Under the pieces are notes generated by a model. That model searched no databases, was not told where the DNA came from, and saw nothing but the letters and a program-made list of their open reading frames with translations. From an uncultured Flavobacteriaceae bacterium (GTDB lineage: Bacteria; Bacteroidota; Bacteroidia; Flavobacteriales; Flavobacteriaceae), in contig CANKUU010000010.1 in NCBI GenBank assembly GCA_947486785.1, forward strand, positions 1 through 61,271: a stretch of DNA of 61,271 nt, read 5' to 3'. The position numbers were made by a program, and so were the translations under genes. Below are positions 183-32,713 of this stretch, piece by piece. Within the stretch, counting starts at the first letter, position 1. The number at the start of each line of letters is the position of its first letter.

Positions 183-210
183 AAAAAGGATGGTCTTATT
201 AGACCATCCT
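183..210 (-). terminator. Rho-independent terminator of the susCD operon
   Basis: Read on the minus strand, a perfect 10-bp stem (187-196 with 201-210, sequence AGGATGGTCT/AGACCATCCT) with a 4-nt loop is followed by a short run of T. It lies about 40 bp beyond the stop of the last gene of the leftward operon, which is where a terminator is expected. Positions 1-180 show no gene that can be supported. Confidence 0.85.
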
Positions 211-252
211 CAAAAAAACTAACTCAAAAGATATAATAGGATTTTTATATGT

Positions 253-1641
253 TTATTGAAAATCCATTATAAACTGTTTAAATTCCATAGAATTAAAGAT
301 TCCATTTGCATCATGTGCAACATTAGGAACAATAATTTTTCTATGATTATGGGTAGTCTGGTAAAACGTTTCCATGTAAGTAAACATATTTTCACCTCTT
401 GCAACTCTATTAGACCCAAGAAGCGTGGCTTGACAATCGCTGGTATTGAGCGTTCCAGTTGTAGAAGTATCATTACCTCCTAAAAAATAAGTAGTATTTC
501 TTGTAACCTGCTGTTCTTCAAGCGTAGCGGATGTAACATCATTAAGATAAGGAACGGCAAACTGAAATCCGTAAGGCCAAAAGTCGTATCCTTCACAATC
601 TGTTGGCACAAAAAAAGTCTGCGTACTTTCATTGAAACGTTGTCCATCAGGATAGTAAAAATATTGATTATTGGCTACAATATATTCATAAGCTACCGTT
701 GGATGAGAATTTTGAACCTTATTTGCCAATGCATAATGTTGCGTAAAAGCTGCACCTGACGAGTGACCCGCAACGAAGACGGTTTTTAGGTTAGGAAATT
801 TGGTCAAATCTGAAAACTTGTTCATTAATGAATCCATCACGGTAAATGAGCTTATTGCCGAATTACTATTACTTGCATTAGAACCTTCTCGCCATCTAAA
901 ATTATTCCAAACTAAGCCATTTTCCGGTGCGTCATCGTCTTTCTGAAAGTAAGGCGATATGATAAGTGTCTTTCTTTCAAGCTCTAAATCTCTTAACGAA
1001 TTTGTCATATAACGAAAATTATCATCTGCATTACGATCGGCACCGTGGACAACCACTACTACCTGTTCTATAAAATCAAAGACCTGCTCATCATTAGAGA
1101 TGAAGTCATAATTTGTATACAAATTAAAGGTAAGAGCAGCATTGTTACTATCCAAAAACGAGAGCTGCTTCAAGCAATCAGCACTTGCGTTTAGGCAAGG
1201 GGTAAGGGACATTGAGCTATCTTCTATGGTTGTAAAACTAAAATTGGTTGCCGCATTAAGCATTTGCCCATCTCTGCCTATTGCTCCTGAACTTACACCA
1301 AAGGTATACTCGGTAGCATATGCCATCTCCACTCCACTAATCACCACCTTAGAAGATTGGTTTTGATATTGAGCCGTGTAGGGCACATTCGCTGAACCAG
1401 CTTTTAAAAAAAAAGCACTTTCAAATTGGTCTGGACTTACCGCCGAAGAAAAAGCAATTTCAAAAGAACTATCAACCGGAACATTTTGTGCATTATCTGT
1501 AAGCGGGCTATCGTTAAATTTAATTGAAATTATGCTGAGGGACAACATATCAGAATCATCTTCTTTATTACCTCCGCAACCTATAAATCCTTGAACAATA
1601 AAAACAACCAAAAAGGCAATTATTAAACTTCTTTTATTCAT
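253..1641 (-). CDS. Ig-like plus alpha/beta-hydrolase lipoprotein (putative esterase)
   Basis: This is a predicted surface or periplasmic lipoprotein hydrolase of 462 residues. The signal peptide ends in a lipobox with Cys22. Residues about 35-140 resemble a bacterial Ig-like domain of the SbsA/Big_5 type, like the N-terminus of its upstream neighbour. Residues about 150-462 look like an alpha/beta hydrolase: strand plus HG oxyanion motif (VVVVHGADRN, 196-204), nucleophile motif GHSSG with Ser294, a possible acid at Asp391 (GGND) and a possible His443 (VAHD). It is the last gene of the leftward susC operon, 68 bp after the preceding gene and just before a terminator. The fold and the Ser motif are visible. 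The substrate is unknown, and esterase or depolymerase activity is inferred from the motif and the context. Confidence 0.8.
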   Translation of the reverse strand: MNKRSLIIAFLVVFIVQGFIGCGGNKEDDSDMLSLSIISIKFNDSPLTDNAQNVPVDSSFEIAFSSAVSPDQFESAFFLKAGSANVPYTAQYQNQSSKVVISGVEMAYATEYTFGVSSGAIGRDGQMLNAATNFSFTTIEDSSMSLTPCLNASADCLKQLSFLDSNNAALTFNLYTNYDFISNDEQVFDFIEQVVVVVHGADRNADDNFRYMTNSLRDLELERKTLIISPYFQKDDDAPENGLVWNNFRWREGSNASNSNSAISSFTVMDSLMNKFSDLTKFPNLKTVFVAGHSSGAAFTQHYALANKVQNSHPTVAYEYIVANNQYFYYPDGQRFNESTQTFFVPTDCEGYDFWPYGFQFAVPYLNDVTSATLEEQQVTRNTTYFLGGNDTSTTGTLNTSDCQATLLGSNRVARGENMFTYMETFYQTTHNHRKIIVPNVAHDANGIFNSMEFKQFIMDFQ

Positions 1642-1709
1642 TTTATTTTTTTTATTTACGTTAGTTAAAAAAATTGAAAATTATTTCCTTCTTAATAAAT
1701 TTAAAATAA

Positions 1710-3479
1710 TTAATTACAAGAAGGATAACTACAAGCAGAGTCCTGAGTATTTGTTGAACCAGCAGCGCAATCTAAATCTCCTGTCATAAATACACCATCT
1801 ACTTTATACGCCCATGTGCCAGAATATTCCCAGGCCTCTCCTGTTCCATCAACATTGGCATCACCATATGTTTCTACAATAACGTCCCCGTTGAACAGCT
1901 CAATAGCATCATCTCCGTTTTGGTTCATGGTTTCAGTCTCGATGATGTGTTCAAATGAACTTATACAGCTTCCAAAATAAGAGGCTAAAGTGGCCTGCTC
2001 GCGAGAAAGAAGAATGTCATCTCCTTCTTCAACGGCAATAGCGGGTAAGGTAAATTCAATACCATCCGTGCCGCCTCCATTATTGGCTACTCCAATACTA
2101 TATATACTTAAGTCAGCTATATTTTTTGTAGCTTTTAAATGAACAGCCTTACCGCCATTTGAGCCACTACCTTCCCATTTCAGGGCCATTACGCCTTGTA
2201 TCATTAGTGCTTCAGCACATATTGGATAGGGACAGGAAGAAGTATCAACTGTAGTAGATCCAACGGAGCAATCTACACCTCCAGTAGTCCAAAATCCATC
2301 AAATTTATATGCCCAAGAACCTTTATACTCCCAAGATTCTCCGGTGCCATCTACAGAATTATCTCCATAGGTTTCTATAACCGTATCACCTTGAAACAAT
2401 TCTATAGCATCATCGCCATTTTGATTTATTGCTGTCTCTGCAGTAATTAGATGCTCAAATTCGCTAACACAATTACCGAAATAGGCTGAAATTAATTCAA
2501 CTTCTCTAGCTACTAAAATATCATCTCCTGCAGAAACAGACATTGCAGGTAATGTATATTCGTTTCCGTCTGTACCGCCGCCATTGTTAGCGGTTCCTAA
2601 GCCATAAATACTCAAATCGGCAATATCTTGGTTGGCTATTAGGTGTATGGCCTTTCCGTCATTATTTCCCGCACCATCCCATGTGAGAGCCATAATTCCC
2701 TTTAAAGAAAGAGCAGGTAGTTGCTCAATAACTGCAAATGTGAGATTTTGTTCATTGTTTGTAGCATTGGATAAATCAGTTAATGAAACTTCTATCGTTT
2801 CATTGCCCTCATTTTCTCCATCCAATACCGTAGTAATTGAAAAGGAAACGGACAGCATCCCTTCGGGTATTGTAAACATTTTATCTCCAGTAATTATATA
2901 ATCAGCAGTCTCAGTAGCGGTTCCTTCAAAAACTAAAGTTCCGGTCACATCCTCATTACTCTCCTTACTTAAAGTTGCTGTAATAACTGCAGTTTCTCCA
3001 TTTTCGCTTAATTCGGTTGCATCTGTAGACAAGGTCAAATTTGGAATTACAAAGGACTCGGTAGAAAAAGCAATCGTCAATGGGTTTTCTAAAGTCTCAC
3101 CGTTAACTCCATATGCTCCTGCCGGTAAAGAAATCGTATAATCGGTTTGATACTCAAAAGGATTGTTTGGTGTTAAGGTAACCGTTGAATTGGTATTAGA
3201 AAAATCTATACCATAATCTACTGTTCCTGACCCAGAAGTTACATTCAAAGAAGAAGTTACTTTATCCGTATTCAAGCTATGAGAAAAGATAATTTCTATT
3301 GGGGATGCAACAGGAACATCCATAACAGCTGACGAAAAATTAGTTCCGCTAATATTTGATTTAAGTGCTGTTAAGTTGTTTTCTTCCAATGCTGTATCTT
3401 CATTATCGTCATTACAGCTAACAATTAACAATATCAGTAATACAGCTACATAGTTAATAAAGTTCATATAATTTTTCAT
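1710..3479 (-). CDS. Lipoprotein with Ig-like, Calx-beta and two lamin-tail-like repeats
   Basis: I choose the ATG at 3479 (589 aa) because it puts a proper lipoprotein signal at the N-terminus, with Cys22 after LLIVS. An upstream ATG at 3509 would overlap the previous stop as ATGA and give 599 aa. Numbering below is from 3509. Residues 50-150 look like an SbsA-type Ig domain and 155-262 like a Calx-beta domain (sheet protein with many Glu/Asp). Then come two tandem copies of a domain of about 165 residues (267-431 and 436-599). They share NGGGTDG, NQNGDDAIELF, VETYGD and a TGE-WEY segment, and each has several Cys. The repeats resemble bacterial lamin-tail (LTD) modules. It is probably a substrate-binding or structural surface protein of the SusCD complex, with no catalytic motif seen. 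Confidence 0.75.
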   Translation of the reverse strand: MKNYMNFINYVAVLLILLIVSCNDDNEDTALEENNLTALKSNISGTNFSSAVMDVPVASPIEIIFSHSLNTDKVTSSLNVTSGSGTVDYGIDFSNTNSTVTLTPNNPFEYQTDYTISLPAGAYGVNGETLENPLTIAFSTESFVIPNLTLSTDATELSENGETAVITATLSKESNEDVTGTLVFEGTATETADYIITGDKMFTIPEGMLSVSFSITTVLDGENEGNETIEVSLTDLSNATNNEQNLTFAVIEQLPALSLKGIMALTWDGAGNNDGKAIHLIANQDIADLSIYGLGTANNGGGTDGNEYTLPAMSVSAGDDILVAREVELISAYFGNCVSEFEHLITAETAINQNGDDAIELFQGDTVIETYGDNSVDGTGESWEYKGSWAYKFDGFWTTGGVDCSVGSTTVDTSSCPYPICAEALMIQGVMALKWEGSGSNGGKAVHLKATKNIADLSIYSIGVANNGGGTDGIEFTLPAIAVEEGDDILLSREQATLASYFGSCISSFEHIIETETMNQNGDDAIELFNGDVIVETYGDANVDGTGEAWEYSGTWAYKVDGVFMTGDLDCAAGSTNTQDSACSYPSCN

Positions 3480-3505
3480 GCTTAAAAGTTTAAGATTGAA
3501 GTTTA

Positions 3506-4990
3506 TCATTTGCTAATTTTGTTAGTTATAAAGGTGCTAAAATCATTTGGGTCGAAATCCCAAATTAACGGTAATAAATAATATACCATAAGGGTTAAAA
3601 ATAGAATTGAAAATACATTCATCCATATTCCACTTTTTACCATATCGGATATTTTCAGGTACCCAGAACCAAAGACCACGGCATTTGGTGGAGTAGCAAC
3701 AGGTAACATGAAGGCACAAGAAGCTGCTACAGTTGTAGCAACCATAAGTATATAAGGATTAATTTCTAATGAAATGGCAATAGGCGCAAGAACAGGAAGT
3801 AACATCGCTGTTGTTGCTAAATTAGAAGTTACCTCGGTAATAAAATTTACAGCGGCTACAACAACAAGAATCAAGATTAAAAGCGTAAGACCTTGTAATA
3901 AGTTCATTTGACTACCAATCCAAGAGGCAAGCCCAGTTGTTTCAAAACCTGAAGCCAATGCCATACCGCCGCCAAAAAGTAGAATTATACCCCAGGGTAA
4001 CTTTACAGCATCATCCCAACCAATAAGCGGCTGCTTTCTGTCACTTCCGGGTATTGTAAATAATAAAATACCGGCAAACATGGCTATTATGGTGTCATCA
4101 ATGGCAGGCAGAAATTGCTGTAGTAGAAAAGACCTACTAATCCAGGCGAAAGCAGTAAGAATAAAAATACCTAAAATAATTTTTTCTTCCTTTTTAATAG
4201 GACCAATTTGATGAAGTAACTTGTTTATTTCAGCTCTTCCCCCCGGAAACTCCTTTTGTTTGAATTTGAAAGCAATTCGGGTCAAATATAACCAAGCTAT
4301 AAATAATAAAGGAATTGCTATAGGTAAACCCCATTTAGCCCATTGCCAGAACGTAATTTCAATACCATAAATTTCTTCTACATATCCTGCAAAAACTAGG
4401 TTTGGAGGGGTTCCAATCAAGGTTGCAATTCCTCCAATAGAAGCGCTATATGCAATACCCAACATAAGTGCTTTGCCAAAAATTAGGTTTTCGTCAGCCT
4501 TTGTCGCAGGGTTGTCTCTCAATTGTGATACGATTGACATGCCTATAGGCAACATCATTACTGCGGTAGCCGTATTTGATATCCACATTGAAAGGAAAGC
4601 GGTGGCCGCCATAAATCCTAAAATAATTTTTGTTACGTTGGTTCCAATAATTCGGATAACGTAGAGTGCAATACGCTTGTGTAGATTCCATTTTTCAATA
4701 GCAATTGCCAACATAAAACCACCCATATATAGAAAAATATACTTATGCCCAAAAGATGCGGTGGTAGTCTGCAAATCAACTGCACCAGTCAATGGAAAAA
4801 GTACAATAGGCAGTAGTGCGGTTACTGCAATAGGAACCGCCTCTGAAACCCACCAAATTGCCATCCATAAAGTAATTCCAAGCATGTCGAAAGCACTTTC
4901 AGGCATTCCAGCAGGTGTCTTTAAAGATTGCAAGACAAGAAAAGCCAACGGGCCAGCTACCAAAAAAATGCTATTTTTTGTAATCTTCAT
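3506..4990 (-). CDS. SLC13/DASS-family sodium:anion symporter
   Basis: This inner-membrane carrier of 494 residues belongs to the divalent anion:Na+ symporter family, whose members import di- or tricarboxylates or sulfate with sodium. Evidence is about 11-12 hydrophobic segments, the first SNT motif (SNTATAVMMLP, 138-148), a GTPPN hairpin near 193-197 and a TPPN near 433-436. The second SNT site reads SNL (389-391, in TSNLATTAMLLP), a change at the site that helps bind Na+ and substrate. The gene overlaps its upstream neighbour by 4 nt and abuts the next, so it is translated with the SusCD and hydrolase genes. This suggests that the released product is an organic acid or other anion. The family is firm, the substrate inferred. 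Confidence 0.88.
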   Translation of the reverse strand: MKITKNSIFLVAGPLAFLVLQSLKTPAGMPESAFDMLGITLWMAIWWVSEAVPIAVTALLPIVLFPLTGAVDLQTTTASFGHKYIFLYMGGFMLAIAIEKWNLHKRIALYVIRIIGTNVTKIILGFMAATAFLSMWISNTATAVMMLPIGMSIVSQLRDNPATKADENLIFGKALMLGIAYSASIGGIATLIGTPPNLVFAGYVEEIYGIEITFWQWAKWGLPIAIPLLFIAWLYLTRIAFKFKQKEFPGGRAEINKLLHQIGPIKKEEKIILGIFILTAFAWISRSFLLQQFLPAIDDTIIAMFAGILLFTIPGSDRKQPLIGWDDAVKLPWGIILLFGGGMALASGFETTGLASWIGSQMNLLQGLTLLILILVVVAAVNFITEVTSNLATTAMLLPVLAPIAISLEINPYILMVATTVAASCAFMLPVATPPNAVVFGSGYLKISDMVKSGIWMNVFSILFLTLMVYYLLPLIWDFDPNDFSTFITNKISK

Positions 4991-5763
4991 TTAATTGTTT
5001 TGTAAAATTCAAAATCCGCTTCTGTTACTATTTGCCTAAGAAAGTTTCCTGTGGTAGGTAATACAAAAGATAAGTACAGTTTCTCCCCTTTTTTATCTAA
5101 AGTGATTAAACGATTTGGAATATCTTCAACAGATTGTTTTGTGAGTGATTTGGTTAGTATAAGCGAAATTAGATATGCACCATCTGAAGAAGGGTGCTTA
5201 TCATCAAAGTATAGCTCCAAATCTGGCCTTGCCTTCCTTGCATTCATCCATATAGGACCTACCGGAAAAATTTGCGCATTCAATTCACTCGCTAGCTTCA
5301 TGTACGCCTTGGTGATAGTATCTTGCATTAAAGGGTTTGATTTGTACGCCCATGTTAAGTAAAAAATTGGCTCTGCGCCTTTAGAACGAACGAGCTTAGC
5401 GAATTTTCTACCATATTCTTGAAAACGTTCTGGTGTATTTATGGTACTAAGACTATGGTCGCCAAAGACAACAAAATCCCAATCTTCTTCTTCAATTCGT
5501 TTTCTAGTCTTTGTTCCTTTTTGGCTCTTCCAATGCTGTTCCAAATTACTACCTCCAACTGTAGATTGATATGCGTCAATAGAAACGCCCTGCGTTTCTG
5601 CCATGGCACTTACCAGTTGTGGCATATTCCAAAAAAAGGTAAAACTGTTTCCTACAAAGAGTATTTTTACAGGTTTTTTTTCTTGTGAGCTTAGACCCTG
5701 TGATACTAATAATAGTAGAGCGAACAAAAGAAAACCGTTATGTTTCAAATTTTTGAACTTCAT
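4987..5763 (-). CDS. Secreted SGNH/GDSL-type hydrolase
   Basis: The protein has 258 residues with a cleavable-looking signal peptide (1-26, ending in SQG-LSSQ). SGNH-type blocks are visible: GNSFT with Ser40 (block I), VGGSN with Gly71 (block II), and DDKHPSSDG with Asp188 and His190 (block V). Block III reads GDHS (101-104) rather than GxND, as in several Bacteroidota SGNH branches. The family includes esterases and acetyl hydrolases acting on decorated polymers. It starts 5 bp after susD and overlaps the anion symporter by 4 nt. It is likely a periplasmic esterase that removes or splits an ester in the imported substrate. The exact substrate is unknown. Confidence 0.82.
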   Translation of the reverse strand: MKFKNLKHNGFLLFALLLLVSQGLSSQEKKPVKILFVGNSFTFFWNMPQLVSAMAETQGVSIDAYQSTVGGSNLEQHWKSQKGTKTRKRIEEEDWDFVVFGDHSLSTINTPERFQEYGRKFAKLVRSKGAEPIFYLTWAYKSNPLMQDTITKAYMKLASELNAQIFPVGPIWMNARKARPDLELYFDDKHPSSDGAYLISLILTKSLTKQSVEDIPNRLITLDKKGEKLYLSFVLPTTGNFLRQIVTEADFEFYKTIK

Positions 5764-5768
5764 TATGA

Positions 5769-7187
5769 TTATTGGTTTATGTCCGTTTTTTCAAAGAAAT
5801 TAGGAATAGGAGTTGGCGTATTTTCATTTCTGTCAATTTCTGATTGCGGATAAAGAAAACGCTGCGGCAATTCATTTCCTGTATTTGGAATGACAGGTAC
5901 TCTAACAATAGTTTCGCTTTCGGTTCTTCTTGTATCGTTGAACGATTCAATTTGTCCAAAAAAGGTAATATACCGTTCTTCCAGAATTTCGCGTAAAAGT
6001 GCATTATCCCTGCTTATATTGTCGGGATTCTCTATACCTCCGTTTTCAAAATCTGTCAGTTCGTATGGCTCGTAGGAAACTTGTGTCGGATCTACGTTGG
6101 TTAGGTATCCTCCTGTATCCATAAAGGCTCTATACCTGTTTAATCTAGTTAGACCCGTATCAAAACCACTAATTCTAAATCCTGCTTCTGCCAGTATCAG
6201 AAGGTTTTCTTCAAAGGTTACCAAAGGCACAGAAGCATTCTGAGCGGCAAAACCATTAGTAATGTTTGGTTGTATGCCTGTACTGTTTGTGGTAAATAAA
6301 AAATTGTACCTACCTGTTTCATTTGTTTTCGCATTACCTCGATAATTTGTCGGAATCGGATTGGTTGTATTTGGGTCGATAAGACTAGCCATAAAATCAG
6401 AAACCACAAGGTCTGCCTGCCGTACCTCGATCGCAAAAAATTGGTAATTAAGATTTGAATTTTCTTCTGCGCTTCCATGGGGGCCGTACATACTGTTTTC
6501 AATGGTGCTAATTCCATTGGAAGCAGCTTCAAAAGCTTCTTGATAGTTTTTGACATGTAAGTAGAAACGAGCTTTTAGGGTATAGGCGGCTTCTATCCAA
6601 GCGATCGAATTACCATCGAAATAAATATCTGATCCAGCTACCGGCCTGCCGGTACCTTGGTTTAATAAAGCAATGGCATTGTCAAGTCTAGTTTGGATTT
6701 TGTTGTAAACAGCAGTTTGTTGTTCGAAGATAGGATTTAAGTTTTCAAGAGTACCTGCCTCTTCAAAAGGAATATCACCATAAAGAGACGCAATAGTTCC
6801 GGCTGCTAATGCTTGTAATACGAGAGCAATACCTTTAGATACGGCACCAACACCATCATTTTCCGCGATGTTTTCAGCAATAAGTGCGTTTCTATAAGAA
6901 TCTACAAAACCATCGTTCCATAAAGCATCAAAATCACTTGTAGTAACTGAATATTGAGAATAACCTAGATGCTGCCTATCTATACCGGTATATTGACCTG
7001 AAAAAATAGACGCTCTTCTGGCAGACTCTCCACTTTGAAAGAGCATAGTGCCAACTTCTGCTCCGGTTAATACAGTTCCGAAAGAACTTTCTGTTAAATT
7101 ATTAGGATCATCGTTTAGGTCATCAACAATTTTGTTGCATGATGAACCTAGTATAATAAGTGTTAAAAGTGCTATACAGTATTTCAT
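5769..7187 (-). CDS. SusD/RagB-family nutrient-binding lipoprotein
   Basis: This outer-membrane surface lipoprotein of 472 residues forms the lid of a SusC transporter. It has a lipobox signal (GSSC, Cys17), then a SusD-like start (LNDDPNNLTESSF), a TPR-like helical body (AYTLKARFYLHVKNYQEAF, about 195-213) and a C-terminal RYITFFGQIESFNDTRR block typical of the family. It starts 16 bp after susC, the usual susC-susD order. It reads like the SusD-like branch common with non-glycan or small-substrate SusC partners, but this cannot be proved by eye. Confidence 0.92.
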   Translation of the reverse strand: MKYCIALLTLIILGSSCNKIVDDLNDDPNNLTESSFGTVLTGAEVGTMLFQSGESARRASIFSGQYTGIDRQHLGYSQYSVTTSDFDALWNDGFVDSYRNALIAENIAENDGVGAVSKGIALVLQALAAGTIASLYGDIPFEEAGTLENLNPIFEQQTAVYNKIQTRLDNAIALLNQGTGRPVAGSDIYFDGNSIAWIEAAYTLKARFYLHVKNYQEAFEAASNGISTIENSMYGPHGSAEENSNLNYQFFAIEVRQADLVVSDFMASLIDPNTTNPIPTNYRGNAKTNETGRYNFLFTTNSTGIQPNITNGFAAQNASVPLVTFEENLLILAEAGFRISGFDTGLTRLNRYRAFMDTGGYLTNVDPTQVSYEPYELTDFENGGIENPDNISRDNALLREILEERYITFFGQIESFNDTRRTESETIVRVPVIPNTGNELPQRFLYPQSEIDRNENTPTPIPNFFEKTDINQ

Positions 7188-7203
7188 TGTTATGAGTTTT
7201 TTA

Positions 7204-10200
7204 TTAAAAATTTAGCGTTACACTTGCCAAGTAAGATCTTGTGCTAGGATTGTTGAAGTATTCTATTCCCCTTGCAGCACTCACACCCGAAAGGTTAGTG
7301 TCTGGATCGTTTCCTTCGAATTTTGTCCATAAAAATAAATTTCTACCTGTAAGTGAAAATTCAGCAGATCCAATACCTATAAAATTTTTCAGCCATTCAT
7401 TTTTTAATGTATATCCAATACTGAGTTCCCTTATACGTGACCAAGAACCATCTTCAATATATAACTCGTCATTACCATTGCTAAAAAATCCTCCGTCACC
7501 ATTATACCAAGATTCGGTAAGTGCCACTGGTCCAGCCCCAAAGTCTGCTACATTTCCTCTGAATACTTCTCCTATGTTTATAATATTGCCCGTAGAAGTA
7601 AAATAATTACGTGTGGCGGTAACTTCATTGGCGGTGTCATGCCAAATTCCTAAATCTCGTAAAACTGATTTTGTTCCAGCAAAGATATCCGCACCTTGAA
7701 AGGTCTCGAATAATACAGATAGTCGAATGTTCTTATAGGTAAAATTTGAAATAAGTGAACCTTGCCAATCTGGGTTTGGGTCACCAATTACACCCTCTAC
7801 TTGATCTTGTTCTGGAAAACCAAACTCGTCAAATACAATAGAACCATCTTCGTTACGAAGTGTGCGAGACCCCCATAAGACTCCTAACGCTTCACCTTCC
7901 ACAGCTCTTGAACTTATTGCAGATAAGCCCCCCAAATTAAGAGATTCGACACCTGCTAAATCGGTTACCCTATTCTTAACTTGGGTGAAGGTTGCATCCA
8001 TTGACCAGGTGAAGTCTTCGGTAGAAATTATACGATACCCGAGATCTAATTCGTAGCCTTTATTTTCTATTTCAGCGCCATTTCTGTAAACAGAGGAGTA
8101 TCCCGTAGAGTTTGCCTGAGGGAAATCAAGTAACACATCTTCTGTAACATTTGAAAAATACGTTCCGCTTATGGATAGTCTGTCATTAAAAAATCGTAGA
8201 TCCATACCCAATTCGATTTCCTTTTTTCTTTCCGGTTTTAGGTTTATACCTCCTCGACCTGAACTTGGTACAAATCCGCCGTTTCCGAATAAGCCAAGAT
8301 TTAAACCTCCGCCTAATGCATCATTAAAAGTGGGAGAAACAAATACGTCAGCCGTATTGTAACGTGCAGGCTGCACACCCACTTCCCCGTAAGATGCTCT
8401 TAATTTTCCAAAAGATAAAAACTTGCTATCCTTAAGTGGTTTTAATTGGGAAAACTGCCAAGTCAAAGAGGTAGAAGGAAACACGAACGGTTTATTGTCA
8501 ACATCTCCAAAGGTAGAAGCAGATTCCGCTCTTATAGTCCCATTCAAAAAAAGCATATCGTACATTGAAAACGATACCGACGAATATACCCCAGCCGTAC
8601 GTTCTTGACCTTGCGAACTTGTAGTAGTGATATTTTCGGGTAAAATGTTATCAATATCGCGAATACCGCTAGCTACATCCAAAAACTGGATAAAATTAGT
8701 ACCTACCGCGCCATTTACAACTCTTTTCCTGTCATTGTAATTAAAACCTACTAGAAAATCACCACTAACATCATTTGTAAAATCAAAAGTAGTCTTAGCG
8801 ATATAATCCATATTGAAAATTGTGTTCGTTGCCAGTTCTTGACCTAATAGCCCAGAGCCAAAAGCACCCGAAGCTGAACCTGGAGTAAAGAATTCGTTTC
8901 TCTTTTCGCTATAATGGTCTAATCCAACTCTTCCTATTAAGGTGAGCCAAGAGTTTGGGGTTGCCGTTAGTTCTACATTGGTAATAAAACGATCTACATT
9001 GGCCAAGTTCTCTTGCTCGTTTATGGTCCAAAGCGGATTATTATAGGTAGGCGTGCCATCTGCCCCCAAAGGTTCTCGGTAAGACCTGTGTCTATTTGGT
9101 ATGGGGGTAGCATCGTTATTTGCAAAATAGTTGCCACGATAACCGCTAATATCAAAATCTAAAGGATTTCGTAGTAACCCAAGATAAAGTCCAGAGCTAT
9201 TGGCGCCCTTTTCAATTCGATTAGACTGGGTATGTGTGTAGGAAGAACTTATTTTTAAACTAATAGCATCAGTGAAATTATGTCTGGCGTTGAAACGTAA
9301 TGTAGTTCTGTTGTAATCTGAATTATTTTTGATGATACCTTGTTGGGTTAGATTTCCTAAACTAAAGAACATAGAACTTTTTTGGTTACCACCACTAACA
9401 CTAAGGTTGTTTTCGATAAAATGTCCGTTAGCAAAAATTTGGTCAAAATTTCTATCATGAAATACCTCTCTGGAATTTTTATTCAATATCGGATAAAAAA
9501 TATTACCTCTCTGATCTATATAAAACTCACCATTTGTATTTAACTCATCCAAACCGCCAGATCTATCTGATACGCGATCGCCCCAAGAATCTCGAGCTCT
9601 TTGATTGTAAATACCATTATCTCCCTGCCCGAATTTTGTCTGAAGTGGAAATCTTCTATTGATTTCATCATACGAGTAGGTTGTTTTTAGGCTTACCTCC
9701 ATTTTATTGTTAAACTTTCCGCTTTTTGTGGTAATGTTTATGACACCTCCCAAGGCTTGCGTTCCCCATAAAGCAGCTGCAGAAGCCCCTTTTAATACCG
9801 TAAGTGTTTCTATGTCGTTCGGATTAATATCATTAAGTCTTGATTCTTGGCTAACTCCGCCACGATTACTATTGCCTCGGGTATCGTTACTTATAGGAAC
9901 ACCATCTACTATAATCAATGGTTGACTATTACGAGTGATAGATGACAAACCTCTAATTTGAATATAAGAACCCGCACCGGGATCACCAGAGTTTCTGGAA
10001 ATACGTACACCAGAAGATTTTCCCGACAATGCACCTAGAACACTAGTCTCCCCAGATTCTGCTAACGTATTCCCTTCTACGGTAGAACTAGCATAACCTA
10101 AGTCGTCTTTTCGCTCTTTAAAACCCAAGGCAGTTACTACTACCTCATCTAATGCTTGCAAATCTTCTTGCATGGTTACATTTAGCGTGGTTTGTGTACC

Positions 10201-10452
10201 TACTTCTACATTCACGGTCTTGAAGCCCAAATAACTAAATAATAAGGTAGAAGATTGAGTTGAAGTTGTAATGGAAAAAAGCCCATCAAAATCTGAGGTT
10301 ACACCATTTGTAGTGTTTTTTTCGATTATAGCAACACCTGCCAAAGGTTGACCGTTTTCATCTGTTACCGACCCAGTAACGGTTTTTTGAGAGGCAACCG
10401 TTTGAATCGTTAGGACTGAAAGTAGCAAGAGTACATAACGTCTGATATTCAT
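7204..10452 (-). CDS. SusC/RagA-family TonB-linked outer-membrane transporter
   Basis: This 1082-residue outer-membrane beta-barrel imports ligand captured by the SusD lid, powered by TonB/ExbBD. Order: signal peptide (1-21), carboxypeptidase-regulatory-like domain (about 24-100, starting VTGSVTDENGQPLAGVAI), TonB-box-like DEVVVTALG near 104-112, plug domain with the SusC motifs (SGDPGAGSYIQIRGLSS, IIVDGVPISN, VLKGASAAALWG), then a long barrel ending in aromatic NF. Length is normal for the family. It is the first gene of the leftward operon, and a divergent regulator-like gene lies 179 bp upstream. No N-terminal anti-sigma-interacting extension (STN) is seen, so control through an ECF/FecR pair is unlikely. 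Confidence 0.95.
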   Translation of the reverse strand: MNIRRYVLLLLSVLTIQTVASQKTVTGSVTDENGQPLAGVAIIEKNTTNGVTSDFDGLFSITTSTQSSTLLFSYLGFKTVNVEVGTQTTLNVTMQEDLQALDEVVVTALGFKERKDDLGYASSTVEGNTLAESGETSVLGALSGKSSGVRISRNSGDPGAGSYIQIRGLSSITRNSQPLIIVDGVPISNDTRGNSNRGGVSQESRLNDINPNDIETLTVLKGASAAALWGTQALGGVINITTKSGKFNNKMEVSLKTTYSYDEINRRFPLQTKFGQGDNGIYNQRARDSWGDRVSDRSGGLDELNTNGEFYIDQRGNIFYPILNKNSREVFHDRNFDQIFANGHFIENNLSVSGGNQKSSMFFSLGNLTQQGIIKNNSDYNRTTLRFNARHNFTDAISLKISSSYTHTQSNRIEKGANSSGLYLGLLRNPLDFDISGYRGNYFANNDATPIPNRHRSYREPLGADGTPTYNNPLWTINEQENLANVDRFITNVELTATPNSWLTLIGRVGLDHYSEKRNEFFTPGSASGAFGSGLLGQELATNTIFNMDYIAKTTFDFTNDVSGDFLVGFNYNDRKRVVNGAVGTNFIQFLDVASGIRDIDNILPENITTTSSQGQERTAGVYSSVSFSMYDMLFLNGTIRAESASTFGDVDNKPFVFPSTSLTWQFSQLKPLKDSKFLSFGKLRASYGEVGVQPARYNTADVFVSPTFNDALGGGLNLGLFGNGGFVPSSGRGGINLKPERKKEIELGMDLRFFNDRLSISGTYFSNVTEDVLLDFPQANSTGYSSVYRNGAEIENKGYELDLGYRIISTEDFTWSMDATFTQVKNRVTDLAGVESLNLGGLSAISSRAVEGEALGVLWGSRTLRNEDGSIVFDEFGFPEQDQVEGVIGDPNPDWQGSLISNFTYKNIRLSVLFETFQGADIFAGTKSVLRDLGIWHDTANEVTATRNYFTSTGNIINIGEVFRGNVADFGAGPVALTESWYNGDGGFFSNGNDELYIEDGSWSRIRELSIGYTLKNEWLKNFIGIGSAEFSLTGRNLFLWTKFEGNDPDTNLSGVSAARGIEYFNNPSTRSYLASVTLNF

Positions 10453-10580
10453 TTTAATTTGGTTTTAAATTGTTAATTTTGAATCGATAAAAGCAGCAAA
10501 CGACAAATCAGTTAATTTGTTATTAGTGGAATATAATGGCTGATACTTTAACAATTATATAACAATAACATTATATTTTT

Positions 10581-10620
10581 ATCACTTTAGTGATTTTTAT
10601 CGATTTTTATCGATTTTTCA
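10581..10620. promoter_or_regulatory. Array of small dyads between susC and the divergent regulator gene
   Basis: The segment starts with a 6-bp inverted repeat ATCACT-TT-AGTGAT (10581-10594). It continues as three 10-bp units (10591-10600, 10601-10610, 10611-10620) of the form (T/C)GATTTTTAT. This creates overlapping dyads TGAT-N4-ATCG and CGAT-N4-ATCG on the same face of the helix. It ends 11 bp before the ATG at 10632 and about 130 bp before susC. It is a good candidate operator, perhaps for autoregulation. Function is inferred only from symmetry and position. Confidence 0.5.
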
Positions 10621-10631
10621 ACCAGTAATGA

Positions 10632-11786
10632 ATGAACAAAAAAGAAGAAATAAATAAAATTCATGCAGATTTTGTCTCGCGACTTGAAAAACATTACGGT
10701 AGTTTTAATTCCGTAAGTAATAAGTTTGAGTCTACTAGCAATTCTAAAATTGCAAGAGATTTATTTTATAGTGATTCTCAATTTTCAAGATTAATCAACA
10801 ACACAGCTTCAGAAGGTGAATTGAAACGCGCCATACGAAATGTGCAGCGGTTATTGGATGTGCATGAACTTCGTCAAAAAGAAACTGATTCTGGTGCAGT
10901 TTCGAGTAAATCTATTTTTAGTCGTAAGACCTTAATTTGGATATCAGGGCTTTTATTGCTTGCCCTGATTATTTCCCTATTTTACCCAAAAAAGGCCATC
11001 GACACCATAAAAAGTGAAAATATAACGGAGCAATCACGTTATGACATGTTACAATGGGGCTTTGAAAATAATTATATAAAACCGTATGTAAAACTGAAGG
11101 AGCTGCCAGAAGATTGTTATTATCCATGTTACAAATATCAAGGAAAATGGAAACTAAAGAACGAGTATAAAATTCCTTTCTTTAGGGAACGTAATGGCTT
11201 TCATTATGTAGCAAAAGAAGCAGTAATGTACGCCAGGTGTATGGATGAACGTAGCGACCGCGGCGAATCATTTGAGGGATACGAATATCAAAAACATGAG
11301 ATTTGGTACGATAAAATGGAGGTGCCTTTAGATTCATTTCTAACAAAAGATATCAACTCAAAATTAAAATCCTCTTACATACAATCGAATTTTGAGAAAG
11401 ATTCAAACTTTGTTAAAATAGCATTTGTACATACTTTTTTTAAAACCGAATTTAAGATCGATAGCAGTCAAATTTTCAGATCAGGCAAAGCCATTGGTCG
11501 AGATATCGAATTTGTTTCCTTGGAACTGCTCGAAAAGCAATCCTTATCAAGCGAAATCTTAAATGAATTGAGAAGGGAGACCAATTCGATAGCAAAAAAT
11601 ATTTTAGAAGATTTTTCAAAACCTATTACCTGTAATCCATCTACTGCACCTAATATAGACTTTAACCAAATCGAAAAAGGTGATGAACTTAGTTTTGATT
11701 GTCAGTTTAGCGCAGGTCGTTTTCTAGTAGATTATACTAAATCATATGTTTTTGAGGATCAGTATATCAGTACCAATTGTCGATAA
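10632..11786 (+). CDS. Membrane-anchored putative one-component regulator of the susCD locus
   Basis: This is a 384-residue protein that I cannot assign to a named family. The first 85 residues are charged and helical. Within them, NSKIARDLFYSDSQFSRLIN (37-56) resembles the helix-turn-helix of XRE-type domains. A single membrane span follows at about 100-118. The remaining 265 residues would lie outside the cytoplasm and hold six Cys (162, 166, 203, 334, 357, 383), which fits disulfides in the periplasm. This is the architecture of ToxR/CadC-like sensors. It is divergent from susC with a dyad array between them, so a sensing and regulatory role for that operon is a reasonable inference. DNA binding is not proved. 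Confidence 0.6.
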   Translation: MNKKEEINKIHADFVSRLEKHYGSFNSVSNKFESTSNSKIARDLFYSDSQFSRLINNTASEGELKRAIRNVQRLLDVHELRQKETDSGAVSSKSIFSRKTLIWISGLLLLALIISLFYPKKAIDTIKSENITEQSRYDMLQWGFENNYIKPYVKLKELPEDCYYPCYKYQGKWKLKNEYKIPFFRERNGFHYVAKEAVMYARCMDERSDRGESFEGYEYQKHEIWYDKMEVPLDSFLTKDINSKLKSSYIQSNFEKDSNFVKIAFVHTFFKTEFKIDSSQIFRSGKAIGRDIEFVSLELLEKQSLSSEILNELRRETNSIAKNILEDFSKPITCNPSTAPNIDFNQIEKGDELSFDCQFSAGRFLVDYTKSYVFEDQYISTNCR

Positions 11787-12310: not shown

Positions 12311-12322
12311 TTTCTCTGTTTG

Positions 12323-12404
12323 TACAGGCGGAGAGACTCGAACTCTCACACCTTGCGGCACTAGATCCTAAGTCTAGCGTGTCTACCAATTCCACCACGC
12401 CTGC
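12323..12404 (-). tRNA. tRNA-Leu (anticodon TAG)
   Basis: The minus strand folds as an 82-nt class II tRNA. The acceptor arm is GCAGGCG with CGCCTGT (a G-U first pair), with discriminator A. The D-arm contains TGGTAGAC. The anticodon stem CTAGA/TCTAG encloses loop CTTAGGA with anticodon TAG. A long variable arm (TGCCGCAAGGTG) and a T-arm GAGTTCGAGTCTC follow. The 3' CCA is not encoded, as is common in Bacteroidota. It decodes CUN leucine codons. Confidence 0.95.
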
Positions 12405-12518: not shown

Positions 12519-13907
12519 ATGAATAACCTCAAAGAATATATTACAAATAACAAAGAACGATTTTTAAACGAAATTATAGCTTTACTTAAAATACCATCCG
12601 TCAGCGCTGACCCCGCATTTTCTCAAGATGTTATAAATGCCGCAGAATCGGTTAAAAATTCGCTTGAAGATGCAGGATGTGATCTTGCAGAAATTCACGA
12701 AACAGATGGTTATCCAATAGTTTATGGTGAAAAAATAATAGATAAAGATTTACCTACCATTCTAGTTTATGGCCACTATGATGTGCAACCTGCAGACCCG
12801 GTAGAACTTTGGGATTCACCCCCGTATGAACCCGTTATCAAAAAAACAACTATTCATCCAGAGGGTGCAATTTTTGCTCGTGGTGCTTGTGACGATAAAG
12901 GGCAAATGTTTATGCATGTAAAAGCCCTCGAATTTATGACCAAAACCAACCAATTGCCCTGCAATGTTAAGTTTATGATCGAAGGCGAAGAAGAAGTAGG
13001 TAGTAATAATTTAGCTGTTTATGTGGCAAAGAATAAAGAAAAATTAGCCAACGATATTATTTTAATTTCAGACACGGGTATGATTGCCAATGATGTACCC
13101 TCGATAACAACTGGCTTACGAGGCTTGAGCTATGTTGAAGTTGAAGTTACCGGTCCCAATAGAGATTTACATTCTGGTTTATATGGTGGCGCCGTTGCAA
13201 ACCCTATAAATATTTTAACTAAAATGATTGCCAGTTTGCAAGATGAAAACAATCATATTACTATACCCGGATTTTATGACAAGGTAGAAGAGCTTTCAAA
13301 AGAGGAGCGTGAAGAAATGGCGAAAGCCCCTTTCTCTTTAGACGCGTACAAAAAAGCATTAGACATTAATGCTGTTTATGGCGAAGATGGGTACACTACA
13401 AATGAACGAAATTCAATACGACCAACTTTAGATGTGAATGGCATTTGGGGTGGTTATATCGGTGAAGGAGCAAAAACTGTAATAGCGAGTAAAGCATATG
13501 CTAAAATATCGATGCGCTTGGTACCCAACCAAGATTGGAAAGAAATTACAGCACTTTTTAAATCACACTTTGAAAATATCGCCCCAAAAGGGGTTACAGT
13601 TAAAGTAACACCCCACCATGGAGGACAGGGTTATGTTACGCCCATTGACACCATCGGATATCAAGCGGCATCAAAAGCCTACGAAACCACCTTTGGCAAA
13701 AAACCAATTCCTCAGCGAAGCGGTGGTAGTATTCCAATAGTAGCGCTGTTTGAACAAGAACTTAACAGTAAAACTATTTTAATGGGCTTTGGTTTAAACA
13801 GCGACGCCATTCATTCTCCGAATGAGCATTTTGGGGTTTGGAACTATTTAAAAGGAATTGAAACTATACCTTATTTTTATGAGTATTTTACCAATATGAA
13901 TGCCTAA
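12519..13907 (+). CDS. M20-family dipeptidase/peptidase
   Basis: This cytosolic zinc metallopeptidase of 462 residues belongs to the M20 family and is closest in appearance to CNDP/dipeptidase members. Metal-site motifs are in order: GHYDVQPAD (first His/Asp), RGACDDKGQ (bridging Asp), EGEEEVGS (catalytic and metal Glu), DTGM, and a C-terminal AIHSPNEHFG His. The dimerisation-domain signature HSGLYGGAVANP is also present. It likely cleaves di- or short peptides for amino-acid recycling. It is monocistronic, with a strong hairpin terminator directly after the stop. Confidence 0.93.
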   Translation: MNNLKEYITNNKERFLNEIIALLKIPSVSADPAFSQDVINAAESVKNSLEDAGCDLAEIHETDGYPIVYGEKIIDKDLPTILVYGHYDVQPADPVELWDSPPYEPVIKKTTIHPEGAIFARGACDDKGQMFMHVKALEFMTKTNQLPCNVKFMIEGEEEVGSNNLAVYVAKNKEKLANDIILISDTGMIANDVPSITTGLRGLSYVEVEVTGPNRDLHSGLYGGAVANPINILTKMIASLQDENNHITIPGFYDKVEELSKEEREEMAKAPFSLDAYKKALDINAVYGEDGYTTNERNSIRPTLDVNGIWGGYIGEGAKTVIASKAYAKISMRLVPNQDWKEITALFKSHFENIAPKGVTVKVTPHHGGQGYVTPIDTIGYQAASKAYETTFGKKPIPQRSGGSIPIVALFEQELNSKTILMGFGLNSDAIHSPNEHFGVWNYLKGIETIPYFYEYFTNMNA

Positions 13908-15869: not shown

Positions 15870-16973
15870 ATGTTAAAGCATTTTTTTCTGGTCTGCTCAG
15901 GGGCAGACACCACCATTATAAAATCGTGCTCAGAAAGCGAGCAAAACAAATATGTAGGTATTGGAGCCACTATATTTTTTACTGCAATAATGGCTTTTAT
16001 TTCCAGTAGTTTTGCACTATATACGGTTTTTGAGGAGTTATTCAGCGCTATCTTCTTTGGACTAATTTGGAGTCTTCTAATTTTTAATCTTGATAGATTT
16101 ATTGTATCTACAATTAAAAAACAAGACCGTTTTAAAGATGAGTTTTTAAAAACTATTCCTAGAATTATTTTAGCGGTAATTATAGCAACTGTAATTTCAA
16201 AACCCTTAGAACTTAAGATTTTTGAAAAAGAAATAAATCAAGTACTTCTCGAAGAAAAAAACACCTTGACGCTTGCCAATAAAAACCAATTGCAACTACA
16301 GTATTCCCCTATGATTAAAAAATTACAACAAAACATAAGCGATTTAAAAATTGAAATAAGCGAACAAGAAGCGAAAACAAATACCCTTTACAATATATAC
16401 ATATCAGAAGCTGAAGGAAAAGCAGGAACTCAGATTTTAGGCAAAGGCCCCGTTTATAAAGAAAAAAGAGAAAAACATGATGCCGCCCTTACAACGCTAA
16501 TAGAATTGAAAGAAAAAAACGCTAAAAAAATATCAGATCTTGAAACTCAAATTAGCACCTTGGATACAAACTACGCGAATGCAGTTAAAAAATCTCAGCC
16601 TATAATTGATAATTTTGATGGTCTTATGGCGCGTATAACGGCTCTTGGCAAATTACCATTTCTACCGTCATTTTTCATATTTTTGTTGTTTTTAGCTATA
16701 GAGACCTCACCTATAATAGCTAAATTATTAGCCCCAAAAGGAACTTACGACATTAAATTAGAAGACCAAGAAAATGCAATTAATACTTGGGTGACTCAAA
16801 AAATAAAACAACGTGAGCAGTTACTTAATACAGACATTTCGCTAAACGAAAAAATTTATAGCGAAATTAAAGAAGAAGAAAATGTTTATGCTTACAAAAA
16901 GAAAAAAACAGTTGAATTACTAAAACTACAGGCTGACACATTTCATTCTGTTCAAACTAAAAATTTACAGTAA
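15870..16973 (+). CDS. DUF4407-family membrane protein
   Basis: The protein has 367 residues. The N-terminus has two hydrophobic hairpins (about 30-50 and 55-75) with the DUF4407-type segment FFGLIWSLLIFNLDRF, then a third span near 95-110. A long central coiled coil (about 120-250) is rich in Lys/Glu/Gln, and a last span (about 260-280) is followed by a charged tail. Such architecture suggests a membrane-anchored periplasmic or cytoplasmic coiled-coil scaffold. The function of DUF4407 is unknown. It appears monocistronic. Confidence 0.85.
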   Translation: MLKHFFLVCSGADTTIIKSCSESEQNKYVGIGATIFFTAIMAFISSSFALYTVFEELFSAIFFGLIWSLLIFNLDRFIVSTIKKQDRFKDEFLKTIPRIILAVIIATVISKPLELKIFEKEINQVLLEEKNTLTLANKNQLQLQYSPMIKKLQQNISDLKIEISEQEAKTNTLYNIYISEAEGKAGTQILGKGPVYKEKREKHDAALTTLIELKEKNAKKISDLETQISTLDTNYANAVKKSQPIIDNFDGLMARITALGKLPFLPSFFIFLLFLAIETSPIIAKLLAPKGTYDIKLEDQENAINTWVTQKIKQREQLLNTDISLNEKIYSEIKEEENVYAYKKKKTVELLKLQADTFHSVQTKNLQ

Positions 16974-27748: not shown

Positions 27749-27816
27749 AGTAATTGATTATTAACCTAATTGGTATTGGTAATTATCAAAAGTACATTGT
27801 ATTTTTATTCAAACAA

Positions 27817-27828
27817 ATATGATCATAT
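27817..27828. promoter_or_regulatory. 12-bp palindrome overlapping the hutH start codon
   Basis: ATATGATCATAT is a perfect palindrome that overlaps the chosen ATG of hutH (27827-27829). It lies in the 78-bp divergent region with the LysR gene. A role as a binding site is possible. The local AT-rich base composition makes chance plausible too. Confidence 0.3.
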
Positions 27829-29407: not shown

Positions 29408-29410
29408 CTT

Positions 29411-30667: not shown

Positions 30668-30701
30668 CAAAAAAATCATCGCTCAAAAAAAACCTATTAT
30701 C

Positions 30702-32702: not shown

Positions 32703-32713
32703 ATGACGAACGC

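What the first reader, a model, noticed from the sequence alone, without database searches (positions are those of the whole stretch)
253..10452. SusCD operon with an anion symporter and two esterase-like hydrolases but no glycoside hydrolase
The sequence shows six co-directional genes with gaps of 16 and 5 bp, 4-nt overlaps and one 68-bp gap, ending in a terminator. SusC/SusD import ligands across the outer membrane. DASS symporters carry carboxylates or sulfate. Together with a secreted SGNH hydrolase and a surface alpha/beta hydrolase, this suggests a locus for an ester or organic-acid polymer (or an acid-substituted molecule), not a glycan. The substrate is an inference.
Basis: partly seen in the sequence, partly recalled or inferred. 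Interest (0 to 1): 0.72.

Follow-up and report, generated by a model that had tools for sequence, protein, structure and literature searches.

The report
Conserved SusCD locus without glycan enzymes
This bacterium carries a conserved seven-gene set that probably lets it cut up, import and eat an acid-rich polymer that is not a sugar, through an import system that is usually associated with sugars.

Summary
The six-gene operon is real, apart from a probably misplaced start codon in the fifth gene, and larger than described. A divergent membrane-anchored, regulator-like gene (10632-11786 +) belongs to it; the region between holds three 10-bp direct repeats (10586-10615), 25-26 bp from a promoter-like box in 6 of 6 close loci. 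The seven parts recur together in five further Flavobacteriaceae-type loci (one with a replaced hydrolase) and, rearranged, in two other families; a sixth relative shows six parts at a contig end. No operon gene that I scanned has a glycoside hydrolase or lyase match above cut-off; the rest are BLAST counterparts of the window's genes. The surface hydrolase is a distant relative of poly(aspartic acid) hydrolase PahZ1 and PHB depolymerase LpqC; in one locus a clear PahZ1-family enzyme replaces it. The symporter scores best with di/tricarboxylate carriers, by a modest margin. Some sister SusCD loci carry peptidases and amidohydrolases. Best reading: surface depolymerase, SusCD, periplasmic esterase and DASS form a route for a carboxylate-rich polyester; poly(beta-malate) is the boldest guess. 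Substrate and regulation are inferred. Against: a 62% SGNH homologue sits in a GH88/sulfatase locus, and polymalate hydrolases described in a review are not serine esterases.

The parts
186..211 (-). intrinsic terminator-like hairpin with T-rich tail, 3' end of the operon
   Evidence: 11-pair stem, 5 G-C pairs, T-rich tail
253..1641 (-). lipoprotein: Big_5 Ig-like domain plus alpha/beta hydrolase domain (GHSSG; S294/D391/H443 proposed triad), distant PahZ1/LpqC relative; proposed surface depolymerase
   Evidence: Big_5 39.5 bits; profile vs 6ve6 1.4e-6, 9o7u 7.4e-6, 3d0k 6.4e-5 for the whole chain, single stretches weak; Foldseek top hits 3d0k, 9o7u, 6ve6; S294 and H443 invariant, D391 in 6 of 7 rows
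1710..3509 (-). lipoprotein: Big_5, Calx-beta-like and two LTD-like repeats; proposed surface ligand-binding protein; likely true start 3479
   Evidence: homologue L072 hits PF00932 at 6.1e-32; start compared with six relatives
3506..4990 (-). DASS symporter, probably of the di/tricarboxylate type, inner membrane
   Evidence: TIGR00785 328.8 bits; best solved chains SLC13A2, A5, A3, then A1; SNT/SNL motifs
4987..5763 (-). secreted, probably periplasmic SGNH hydrolase, DUF4886 family
   Evidence: PF16227 44.2 bits; S40, D187, H190 invariant in 9 of 9 rows
5769..7187 (-). SusD-like outer-membrane lipoprotein (SusD-like_2)
   Evidence: PF12771 91.1 bits
7204..10452 (-). SusC/RagA TonB-dependent transporter
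   Evidence: TIGR04056 634.5 bits; in a clade of 8 locus SusC proteins with 100/100 support
10552..10559 (-). promoter-like box TATAATTG at fixed spacing from the repeats (Bacteroidota consensus TAnnTTTG is recalled, not from a call)
   Evidence: 26 nt after the last repeat in 5 of 6 close loci, 25 nt in one
10586..10615 (-). three direct 10-bp repeats (AATCGATAAA, AATCGATAAA, AATCACTAAA), proposed operator of the regulator-like gene
   Evidence: 16 of the 29 invariant columns of six aligned loci fall here; period 10 is the best of 8-14 in 10 of 10 regions tested; a pattern fitted to this site occurs once in the 3.57-Mb genome
10632..11786 (+). divergent regulator-like membrane protein: N-terminal helical (HTH-like) part, hydrophobic helix about 100-118, C-terminal beta-rich part with six conserved cysteines
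   Evidence: present beside the operon in 8 of 9 loci, the ninth (L036) being cut by its contig end; hydropathy and cysteines; low-confidence model

Best explanation
It is a SusCD nutrient-uptake locus specialised for a carboxylate-rich, non-glycan polymer or oligomer, most likely a polyester of small hydroxy-di(tri)carboxylic acids. The surface lipoprotein hydrolase (PahZ1/LpqC kin) cuts the polymer outside, the LTD/Big_5 lipoprotein holds it, SusCD imports oligomers through the outer membrane, the periplasmic DUF4886 SGNH hydrolase cuts them to monomers, and the DASS symporter brings the acid anion into the cell, where it can enter the TCA cycle without a dedicated catabolic enzyme. The divergent membrane-anchored protein senses the acid or oligomer in the periplasm and activates the operon from the 10-bp repeats. 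Shown: gene content, conservation, homology, repeats. Inferred: localisation, substrate, direction of regulation.
For: All seven parts are together in the window, L031, L032, L035 and L051, in L034 with a replaced hydrolase, and in families f63 (L072) and f3 (L073); L036 shows six at a contig end. No GH/PL above cut-off among the operon genes scanned. Surface hydrolase: profile and fold hits to PahZ1 and LpqC; in L034 a PahZ1-family enzyme stands in its place, 1.8e-51 to 6ve6. DASS scores best with SLC13A2, A5 and A3. A 26%-identical regulator homologue in G697 lies divergent to only a porin-like gene and a DASS gene, which links it to the anion. Some relatives of this SusCD sit with M14, AstE/AspA, amidohydrolase and M20 genes. 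Repeats.
Against: No substrate, expression or enzyme data. G236 has a 62% SGNH homologue in a SusCD locus with GH88 and three sulfatases, and SGNH homologues occur in 69 of 298 family genomes, mostly outside this locus. Hydrolase homologues in G371 and G437 lie outside such a locus. The single aligned stretches to PahZ1/LpqC are weak on their own (i-Evalues 0.03 to 2.8), and NCBIfam depolymerase scores are 12 to 28 bits against a cut-off of 150. PahZ1 cuts amides. The sulfate-type carrier SLC13A1 scores 341 bits against 383 for the best chain and also has SNT in the first hairpin. No family model confirms an HTH in the window protein. A GH2-like gene above cut-off lies on the other strand 2-3 kb past the Flavivirga operon. 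L052 lacks SusCD and LTD. L036 shows no repeats in the stretch held.
Confidence: 0.5

Rival explanations
1. The polymer is held by amide bonds: a poly- or oligo-(acidic amino acid) or N-acyl compound, cut by the PahZ1-like enzyme.
For: PahZ1 cleaves beta-Asp amide bonds (PMC4456602, passages); sister SusCD loci hold M14, M20, AstE/AspA-like and amidohydrolase genes and L050 a gamma-glutamyltranspeptidase; L052 has an M14 gene beside the hydrolase, SGNH and DASS.
Against: The nine focal operons show no peptidase or amidohydrolase among the genes scanned or assigned by BLAST, but a second, SGNH, hydrolase; DASS carriers take di/tricarboxylates rather than aspartate as a rule (recalled).
Confidence: 0.2
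2. The locus handles an acylated glycan: the two hydrolases strip acid groups (for example succinyl) and the DASS takes up the released acid, while the sugar is processed elsewhere.
For: Most characterised SGNH families include carbohydrate-active enzymes (PMC9487903, passages); G236 SGNH in a GH88/sulfatase locus.
Against: No glycan enzyme found in the nine operons (rest by BLAST); ten sister-locus neighbours scanned had no GH, although a GH31 gene lies divergent to L050.
Confidence: 0.15
3. The anion is sulfate and the substrate a sulfated compound.
For: Pfam names the family Na_sulph_symp; SLC13 member 1 (a sulfate carrier by recall) scores 341 bits against 383 for the best chain and shares SNT in the first hairpin.
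Against: SLC13A2, A5 and A3 score better; the second motif SNL is nearer SNV of A2/A5 than SNP of A1; no sulfatase among the focal operon genes scanned. Odds raised from 0.04 to 0.06 after I noted that SNT does not separate the two kinds.
Confidence: 0.06
4. The locus imports an ester- or citrate-type siderophore, with the surface hydrolase as a siderophore esterase.
For: Foldseek lists fungal siderophore hydrolases EstA/EstB lower down; a TonB-dependent transporter is present.
Against: Better hits are polymer hydrolases; a hydrolase on the cell surface would destroy the ligand before uptake; the regulator homologue also occurs with only a porin-like gene and a DASS gene. Iron genes were not searched for.
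Confidence: 0.04

Closest known systems
Sus-type utilisation locus / outer-membrane utilisome (PMC7618045, start of abstract in a search listing)
   Same: SusC, SusD, further surface lipoproteins and an enzyme in one operon
   Different: no glycoside hydrolase or lyase found; hydrolases of esterase type plus an anion symporter
PahZ1 poly(aspartic acid) hydrolase (Sphingomonas KT-1, Pedobacter KP-2) and LpqC PHB depolymerase
   Same: alpha/beta hydrolase fold, aligned Ser and His, shared C-terminal G..R..R region
   Different: 13-19% identity over the model, extra Big_5 domain, lipoprotein, encoded with SusCD; the L034 stand-in is much closer
RagAB importer (PMC11817032, start of abstract in a search listing)
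   Same: a SusCD-type pair for a non-glycan (protein/peptide) ligand
   Different: no DASS or esterase partners known to me (recalled)
Polymalate hydrolase of Comamonas acidovorans (PMC9210645, section 10 read)
   Same: bacterial, outer-membrane located; lets the bacterium use malate from the polymer
   Different: reported without serine-esterase activity, whereas this enzyme has a serine motif
ToxR/CadC-like one-component membrane regulators (recalled)
   Same: N-terminal helical part, one hydrophobic helix, C-terminal outer part
   Different: no Pfam model matches the window protein; cysteine-rich beta part; 10-bp triple repeat

Membership tests
Polysaccharide utilisation locus | adjacent SusC and SusD genes | tested here: met
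Polysaccharide utilisation locus | glycoside hydrolase or polysaccharide lyase in the operon | tested here: not met
   none above Pfam cut-off in the six window proteins or in the relatives' operon genes that were scanned; the other relatives' genes were assigned by BLAST to window genes. A methionine-synthase-like gene about 150 bp past the last L072 gene was judged by eye only
PahZ1/LpqC-type depolymerases | significant profile or fold similarity | tested here: met
   whole-chain E 1.4e-6 and 6.4e-5, single stretches weak; Foldseek 5.1e-11, TM 0.40-0.42 by query, 0.62-0.66 by target
PahZ1/LpqC-type depolymerases | Ser-Asp-His triad at aligned places | tested here: met
   S294 and H443 invariant, D391 in 6 of 7 rows, missing in L036; triad role by homology
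PahZ1/LpqC-type depolymerases | curated NCBIfam depolymerase cut-off | tested here: not met
   16.8 against 150 bits; relatives 12.1 to 28.4 bits or no match
PahZ1/LpqC-type depolymerases | depolymerase activity | not testable with these tools
   needs enzyme assay
DASS anion symporters | TIGR00785 cut-off | tested here: met
   328.8 against 198.6 bits
DASS dicarboxylate carriers | two Ser-Asn-Thr motifs (PMC7553777, passage) | tested here: inconclusive
   first SNT kept, second SNL; SLC13A2 and A5 have SNT/SNV, A3 SNT/SNT, A1 SNT/SNP, so the first motif does not tell carboxylate from sulfate
SGNH hydrolases, DUF4886 | PF16227 cut-off and catalytic Ser, Asp, His | tested here: met
   44.2 against 26.7; S40, D187, H190 in 9 of 9
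Known polymalate hydrolases | non-serine-esterase mechanism | tested here: not met
   serine-type GHSSG motif against PMC9210645 section 10
ToxR/CadC-like regulators | single transmembrane helix between a DNA-binding and an outer domain | tested here: inconclusive
   strongest hydrophobic stretch at residues 97-108 onward in 9 of 9, none comparable past residue 140; the part before it was not ranked; no HTH family for the window protein, HTH_Tnp_1 below cut-off for the L052 fragment

The most novel reading that the evidence does not exclude
The locus is a poly(beta-L-malate)-type (poly-hydroxydicarboxylate) utilisation system: a SusCD machine that imports a polyanionic polyester, a class of substrate for which I found no SusCD report (SusD with polymalic acid: 0 papers; SusD with polyester: 16 papers, none of which describes such a locus by title or start of abstract; TonB-dependent, SusD, polyhydroxyalkanoate and depolymerase: 1 paper, PMC7029141, not opened), under a new family of membrane-anchored regulators that read triple 10-bp repeats.
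Probability: 0.2. Interest if true: 0.8.

Novelty: new variant of a known kind. Interest (0 to 1): 0.6.

Why it matters
SusCD systems are read almost by default as glycan importers. A conserved SusCD set with depolymerase-like hydrolases and a carboxylate-type carrier, seen even in a 1.4-Mb assembly (G067, 87% complete, regulator side not held), would widen what Bacteroidota are thought to eat, give the DUF4886 family a likely role (no known activity in a 2022 review, PMC9487903, passages), and offer enzymes for polyester or poly-acid breakdown. It gives one clear, cheap test: growth on and induction by polymalate and related poly-acids.

Tried and rejected
A first scan for the operator assumed an 11-bp unit and gave weak results (shuffles reached the score in 1 to 269 of 500 over 11 regions); an autocorrelation over periods 8-14 then showed period 10 (for L072 the margin is small, 0.63 against 0.62 for period 8). 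A first genome pattern was badly set and found 0 sites; the second was fitted to the window's own site, so it shows uniqueness only. L036 was dropped because its contig ends before the regulator; the stretch held shows no repeats. The TAnnWTTG box was not found in the four distant regions L072, L073, L081 and L052.

The M20 peptidase at 12519-13907 (PahZ2 is an M20-like exopeptidase by recall) was considered as a partner and rejected: the genes beside the regulator in relatives do not look like M20 by length and N-terminus (they were not scanned). Sulfate, siderophore and acylated-glycan readings are kept as rivals with low weight. Distant SGNH homologues (28-40%) in L037-L050 lie among other genes, two of them beside a gamma-glutamyltranspeptidase gene (L049, L050), and were not counted as relatives of the locus; the part of the map between L040 and L042 was cut from the output and not read again. 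Hydrolase homologues in L074 and L075 lie outside such a locus.

The genome-contig scan confirmed 2 loci of 17 stretches matched. The regulator model is poor (pLDDT 55.6) and no fold search was completed with it.
Full report
Observation. The six minus-strand genes are there at the stated coordinates and spacings, followed by a terminator-like hairpin at 211-186. Families: SusC/RagA, SusD-like_2, DUF4886 SGNH hydrolase, DASS symporter, and two lipoproteins (by eye) with Big_5 domains, one with LTD-like repeats and one with an alpha/beta hydrolase domain. The LTD start is probably at 3479, not 3509.

The locus is bigger. A 384-aa gene at 10632-11786 on the plus strand diverges from SusC. It has relatives of 56-77% identity at the same place in L031, L032, L034, L035 and L051 and of about 26% in L072 and L073. 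The strongest hydrophobic stretch starts at residue 97-108 in 9 of 9 sequences, with none comparable past residue 140; the window protein has six cysteines, all beyond that stretch and invariant in the six close relatives. A two-sequence model (pLDDT 55.6) shows N-terminal helices, the hydrophobic helix and a beta-rich C-terminal part. I read it as a membrane-anchored one-component regulator; no family model confirms the HTH.

Operator. The 179-bp divergent region carries three 10-bp direct repeats (10586-10615). In an alignment of six loci, 16 of the 29 invariant columns fall in the repeats and 6 in the box described next. In 10 of 10 regions next to the regulator gene or its homologue, 10 is the best period among 8-14 (narrowly in L072); shuffles reached the period-10 score in 0 of 200 for seven regions, and in 5, 8 and 3 of 200 for L034, L072 and L081. 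In the six close loci a TAnnWTTG box follows the last repeat after 26, 25, 26, 26, 26 and 26 nt (window, L031, L032, L034, L035, L051). L031, L032 and L035 have further repeats upstream in the same register; L051 has a second repeat match out of register and further box matches at other distances. The box was not found in L072, L073, L081 and L052. A pattern fitted to the window site occurs once in the 3.57-Mb genome. L036 shows no repeats in the stretch held.

Distribution. Of 298 genomes sampled from the family, 6 including the window's have a SusD of 52% identity or more, and all six hold the locus (G174 with a replaced hydrolase, G067 without its regulator side). Of 14 genomes of the genus (9 of them at least 90% complete and at most 5% contaminated), 2 match at E 1e-60: the window's and G693, whose SusD is 42% identical and in a different setting. 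Of 395 genomes of the class, 4 have the regulator: G000, G174, G381 and G496, all with the locus. Of 395 of the order, 3 have it: G000, G174 and G697; of 193 of the phylum sample, 3. In the class sample 12 of 395 match the hydrolase profile, but only five cover the catalytic part: G000, G381, G496, and G371 and G437, where the gene lies outside such a locus. Gene order differs in L036, L072 and L073 while content is kept; in L073 the LTD-like protein is 1114 aa with a secretion tail, and a separate Big_5/GLUG protein is added. The SusC tree puts 8 of the 9 locus SusC proteins in one clade (100/100), with L072 of family f63 inside it; the SusC of L073 belongs to the sister group. The patchy spread suggests transfer between families (inference).

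No glycan enzymes. Scanned in relatives' operons: the L034 305-aa protein, L051 295-aa, three proteins each of L072 and L073 and two of L036, and six L052 proteins. None had a GH or PL hit above cut-off; one GH28 hit in the L072 LTD protein was 13.3 bits against 22.9. The other operon genes were assigned by BLAST to window genes. Outside the operons, a GH2-like gene (22.2 bits, cut-off 21) lies 2-3 kb past the L051 operon on the other strand, and a GH31 gene is divergent to the sister locus L050. The SGNH of G236, 62% identical, is in a locus with GH88 and three sulfatases and lacks the regulator, DASS, LTD and hydrolase genes in the 19.5 kb held. SGNH homologues at E 1e-10 occur in 69 of 298 family genomes, mostly outside this locus.

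Surface hydrolase. A profile of seven relatives finds PahZ1 of two species and LpqC in the PDB (1.4e-6, 7.4e-6, 6.4e-5 for the whole chain), through two aligned blocks that include the nucleophile and the C-terminal G..R..R region; each block alone is weak. The three-sequence model (pLDDT 69.4) gives LpqC and both PahZ1 structures as Foldseek's best hits. In L034 the gene is absent and a 305-aa protein next to LTD matches PahZ1 at 1.8e-51. PahZ1 cuts beta-Asp amides and is assumed to share ancestry with PHB depolymerases (PMC4456602, passages).

Symporter. The best solved chains are SLC13A2 (383 bits), A5 (367) and A3 (357.5), then SLC13A1 (341). The first hairpin motif is SNT in 10 of 10 homologues from the nine loci and L052, and in L081; the second is SNL in nine of the 10 and SNV in L036; the DASS genes of sister loci L118 and L122 have ANV and SNT instead (the L111 gene was not included). 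Two SNT motifs bind the carboxylates of the substrate in DASS proteins (PMC7553777, passage), but SLC13A1 also has the first SNT, so the motif alone does not exclude sulfate.

Regulator and anion. In G697 a regulator homologue (26%) is divergent to a porin-like gene (NF040900, 82 bits against a cut-off of 150) and a DASS gene (44%) only. This ties the regulator to the transported anion rather than to SusCD.

Sister SusCD loci. Of 22 sister loci (20 fetched, plus L050 and L079), 21 show a SusC of 37-46% identity to the window's, and in L124 the contig end cuts the pair; three carry a DASS gene in the operon (L111, L118, L122). Ten neighbour proteins scanned, from L118, L110 and L121 only, gave M14, M20, AstE/AspA, amidohydrolase, diaminopentanoate-dehydrogenase-like and DASS matches, and no GH; L079 has an amidohydrolase gene and L050 a gamma-glutamyltranspeptidase gene. 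The other neighbours were not scanned.

Synthesis. The parts form an ordered path: surface hydrolase and binding lipoprotein, SusCD, periplasmic SGNH hydrolase, inner-membrane carboxylate symporter, and a membrane-anchored regulator. The operon encodes no catabolic enzyme, which fits a monomer that enters the TCA cycle directly. Poly(beta-malate) is the natural polymer that fits best in my view: it is the ester analogue of beta-poly(aspartate), and its monomer is a typical dicarboxylate (recalled). Against it, the polymalate hydrolases described in PMC9210645 (section 10) are not serine esterases. I hold the class of substrate at 0.5 and polymalate at 0.2.

Literature. Ten searches of the held library were run. 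Those that bear on a SusCD route for polyesters or poly-acids list no paper that describes one by title or start of abstract. The nearest is PMC8767016 (passages), which only speculates that SusD proteins of two PET-hydrolysing Bacteroidetes help them attach to PET. Most subscription papers are not held.

Noticed in passing
window 27770-33682: Histidine-utilisation-like operon: aromatic amino acid lyase, amidohydrolase, urocanase and arginase-family gene.
   Followed up: no
window 15870-16973: DUF4407 protein, 333.6 bits.
   Followed up: no
window 52210-53829: Lipoprotein-like protein (by eye) with a SASA (sialate acetylesterase-type) domain, two stretches; no link to the operon seen.
   Followed up: no
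window 12322-12404: tRNA-Leu on the minus strand between the regulator-like gene and the M20 peptidase gene.
   Followed up: no
L118, L122, L111: Sister SusCD loci with a DASS gene; L118 also has AstE/AspA-like, M14, M20, amidohydrolase and 2,4-diaminopentanoate dehydrogenase-like genes, L122 an M14-like gene by BLAST: probably another non-glycan SusCD system.
   Followed up: partly
L049 62-2412 and L050 7629-10023: Distant SGNH gene directly after a gamma-glutamyltranspeptidase gene in two small genomes.
   Followed up: no
L052 703-12213 (uncultured Fulvivirga): The hydrolase, SGNH, DASS and a regulator fragment without SusCD, with two related uncharacterised 445- and 481-aa proteins, GLUG/Big_5 proteins and an M14 gene; perhaps another outer-membrane route.
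   Followed up: partly
L033 455-19499: SGNH homologue (62%) in a SusCD locus with GH88, three sulfatases and a GMC oxidoreductase.
   Followed up: partly
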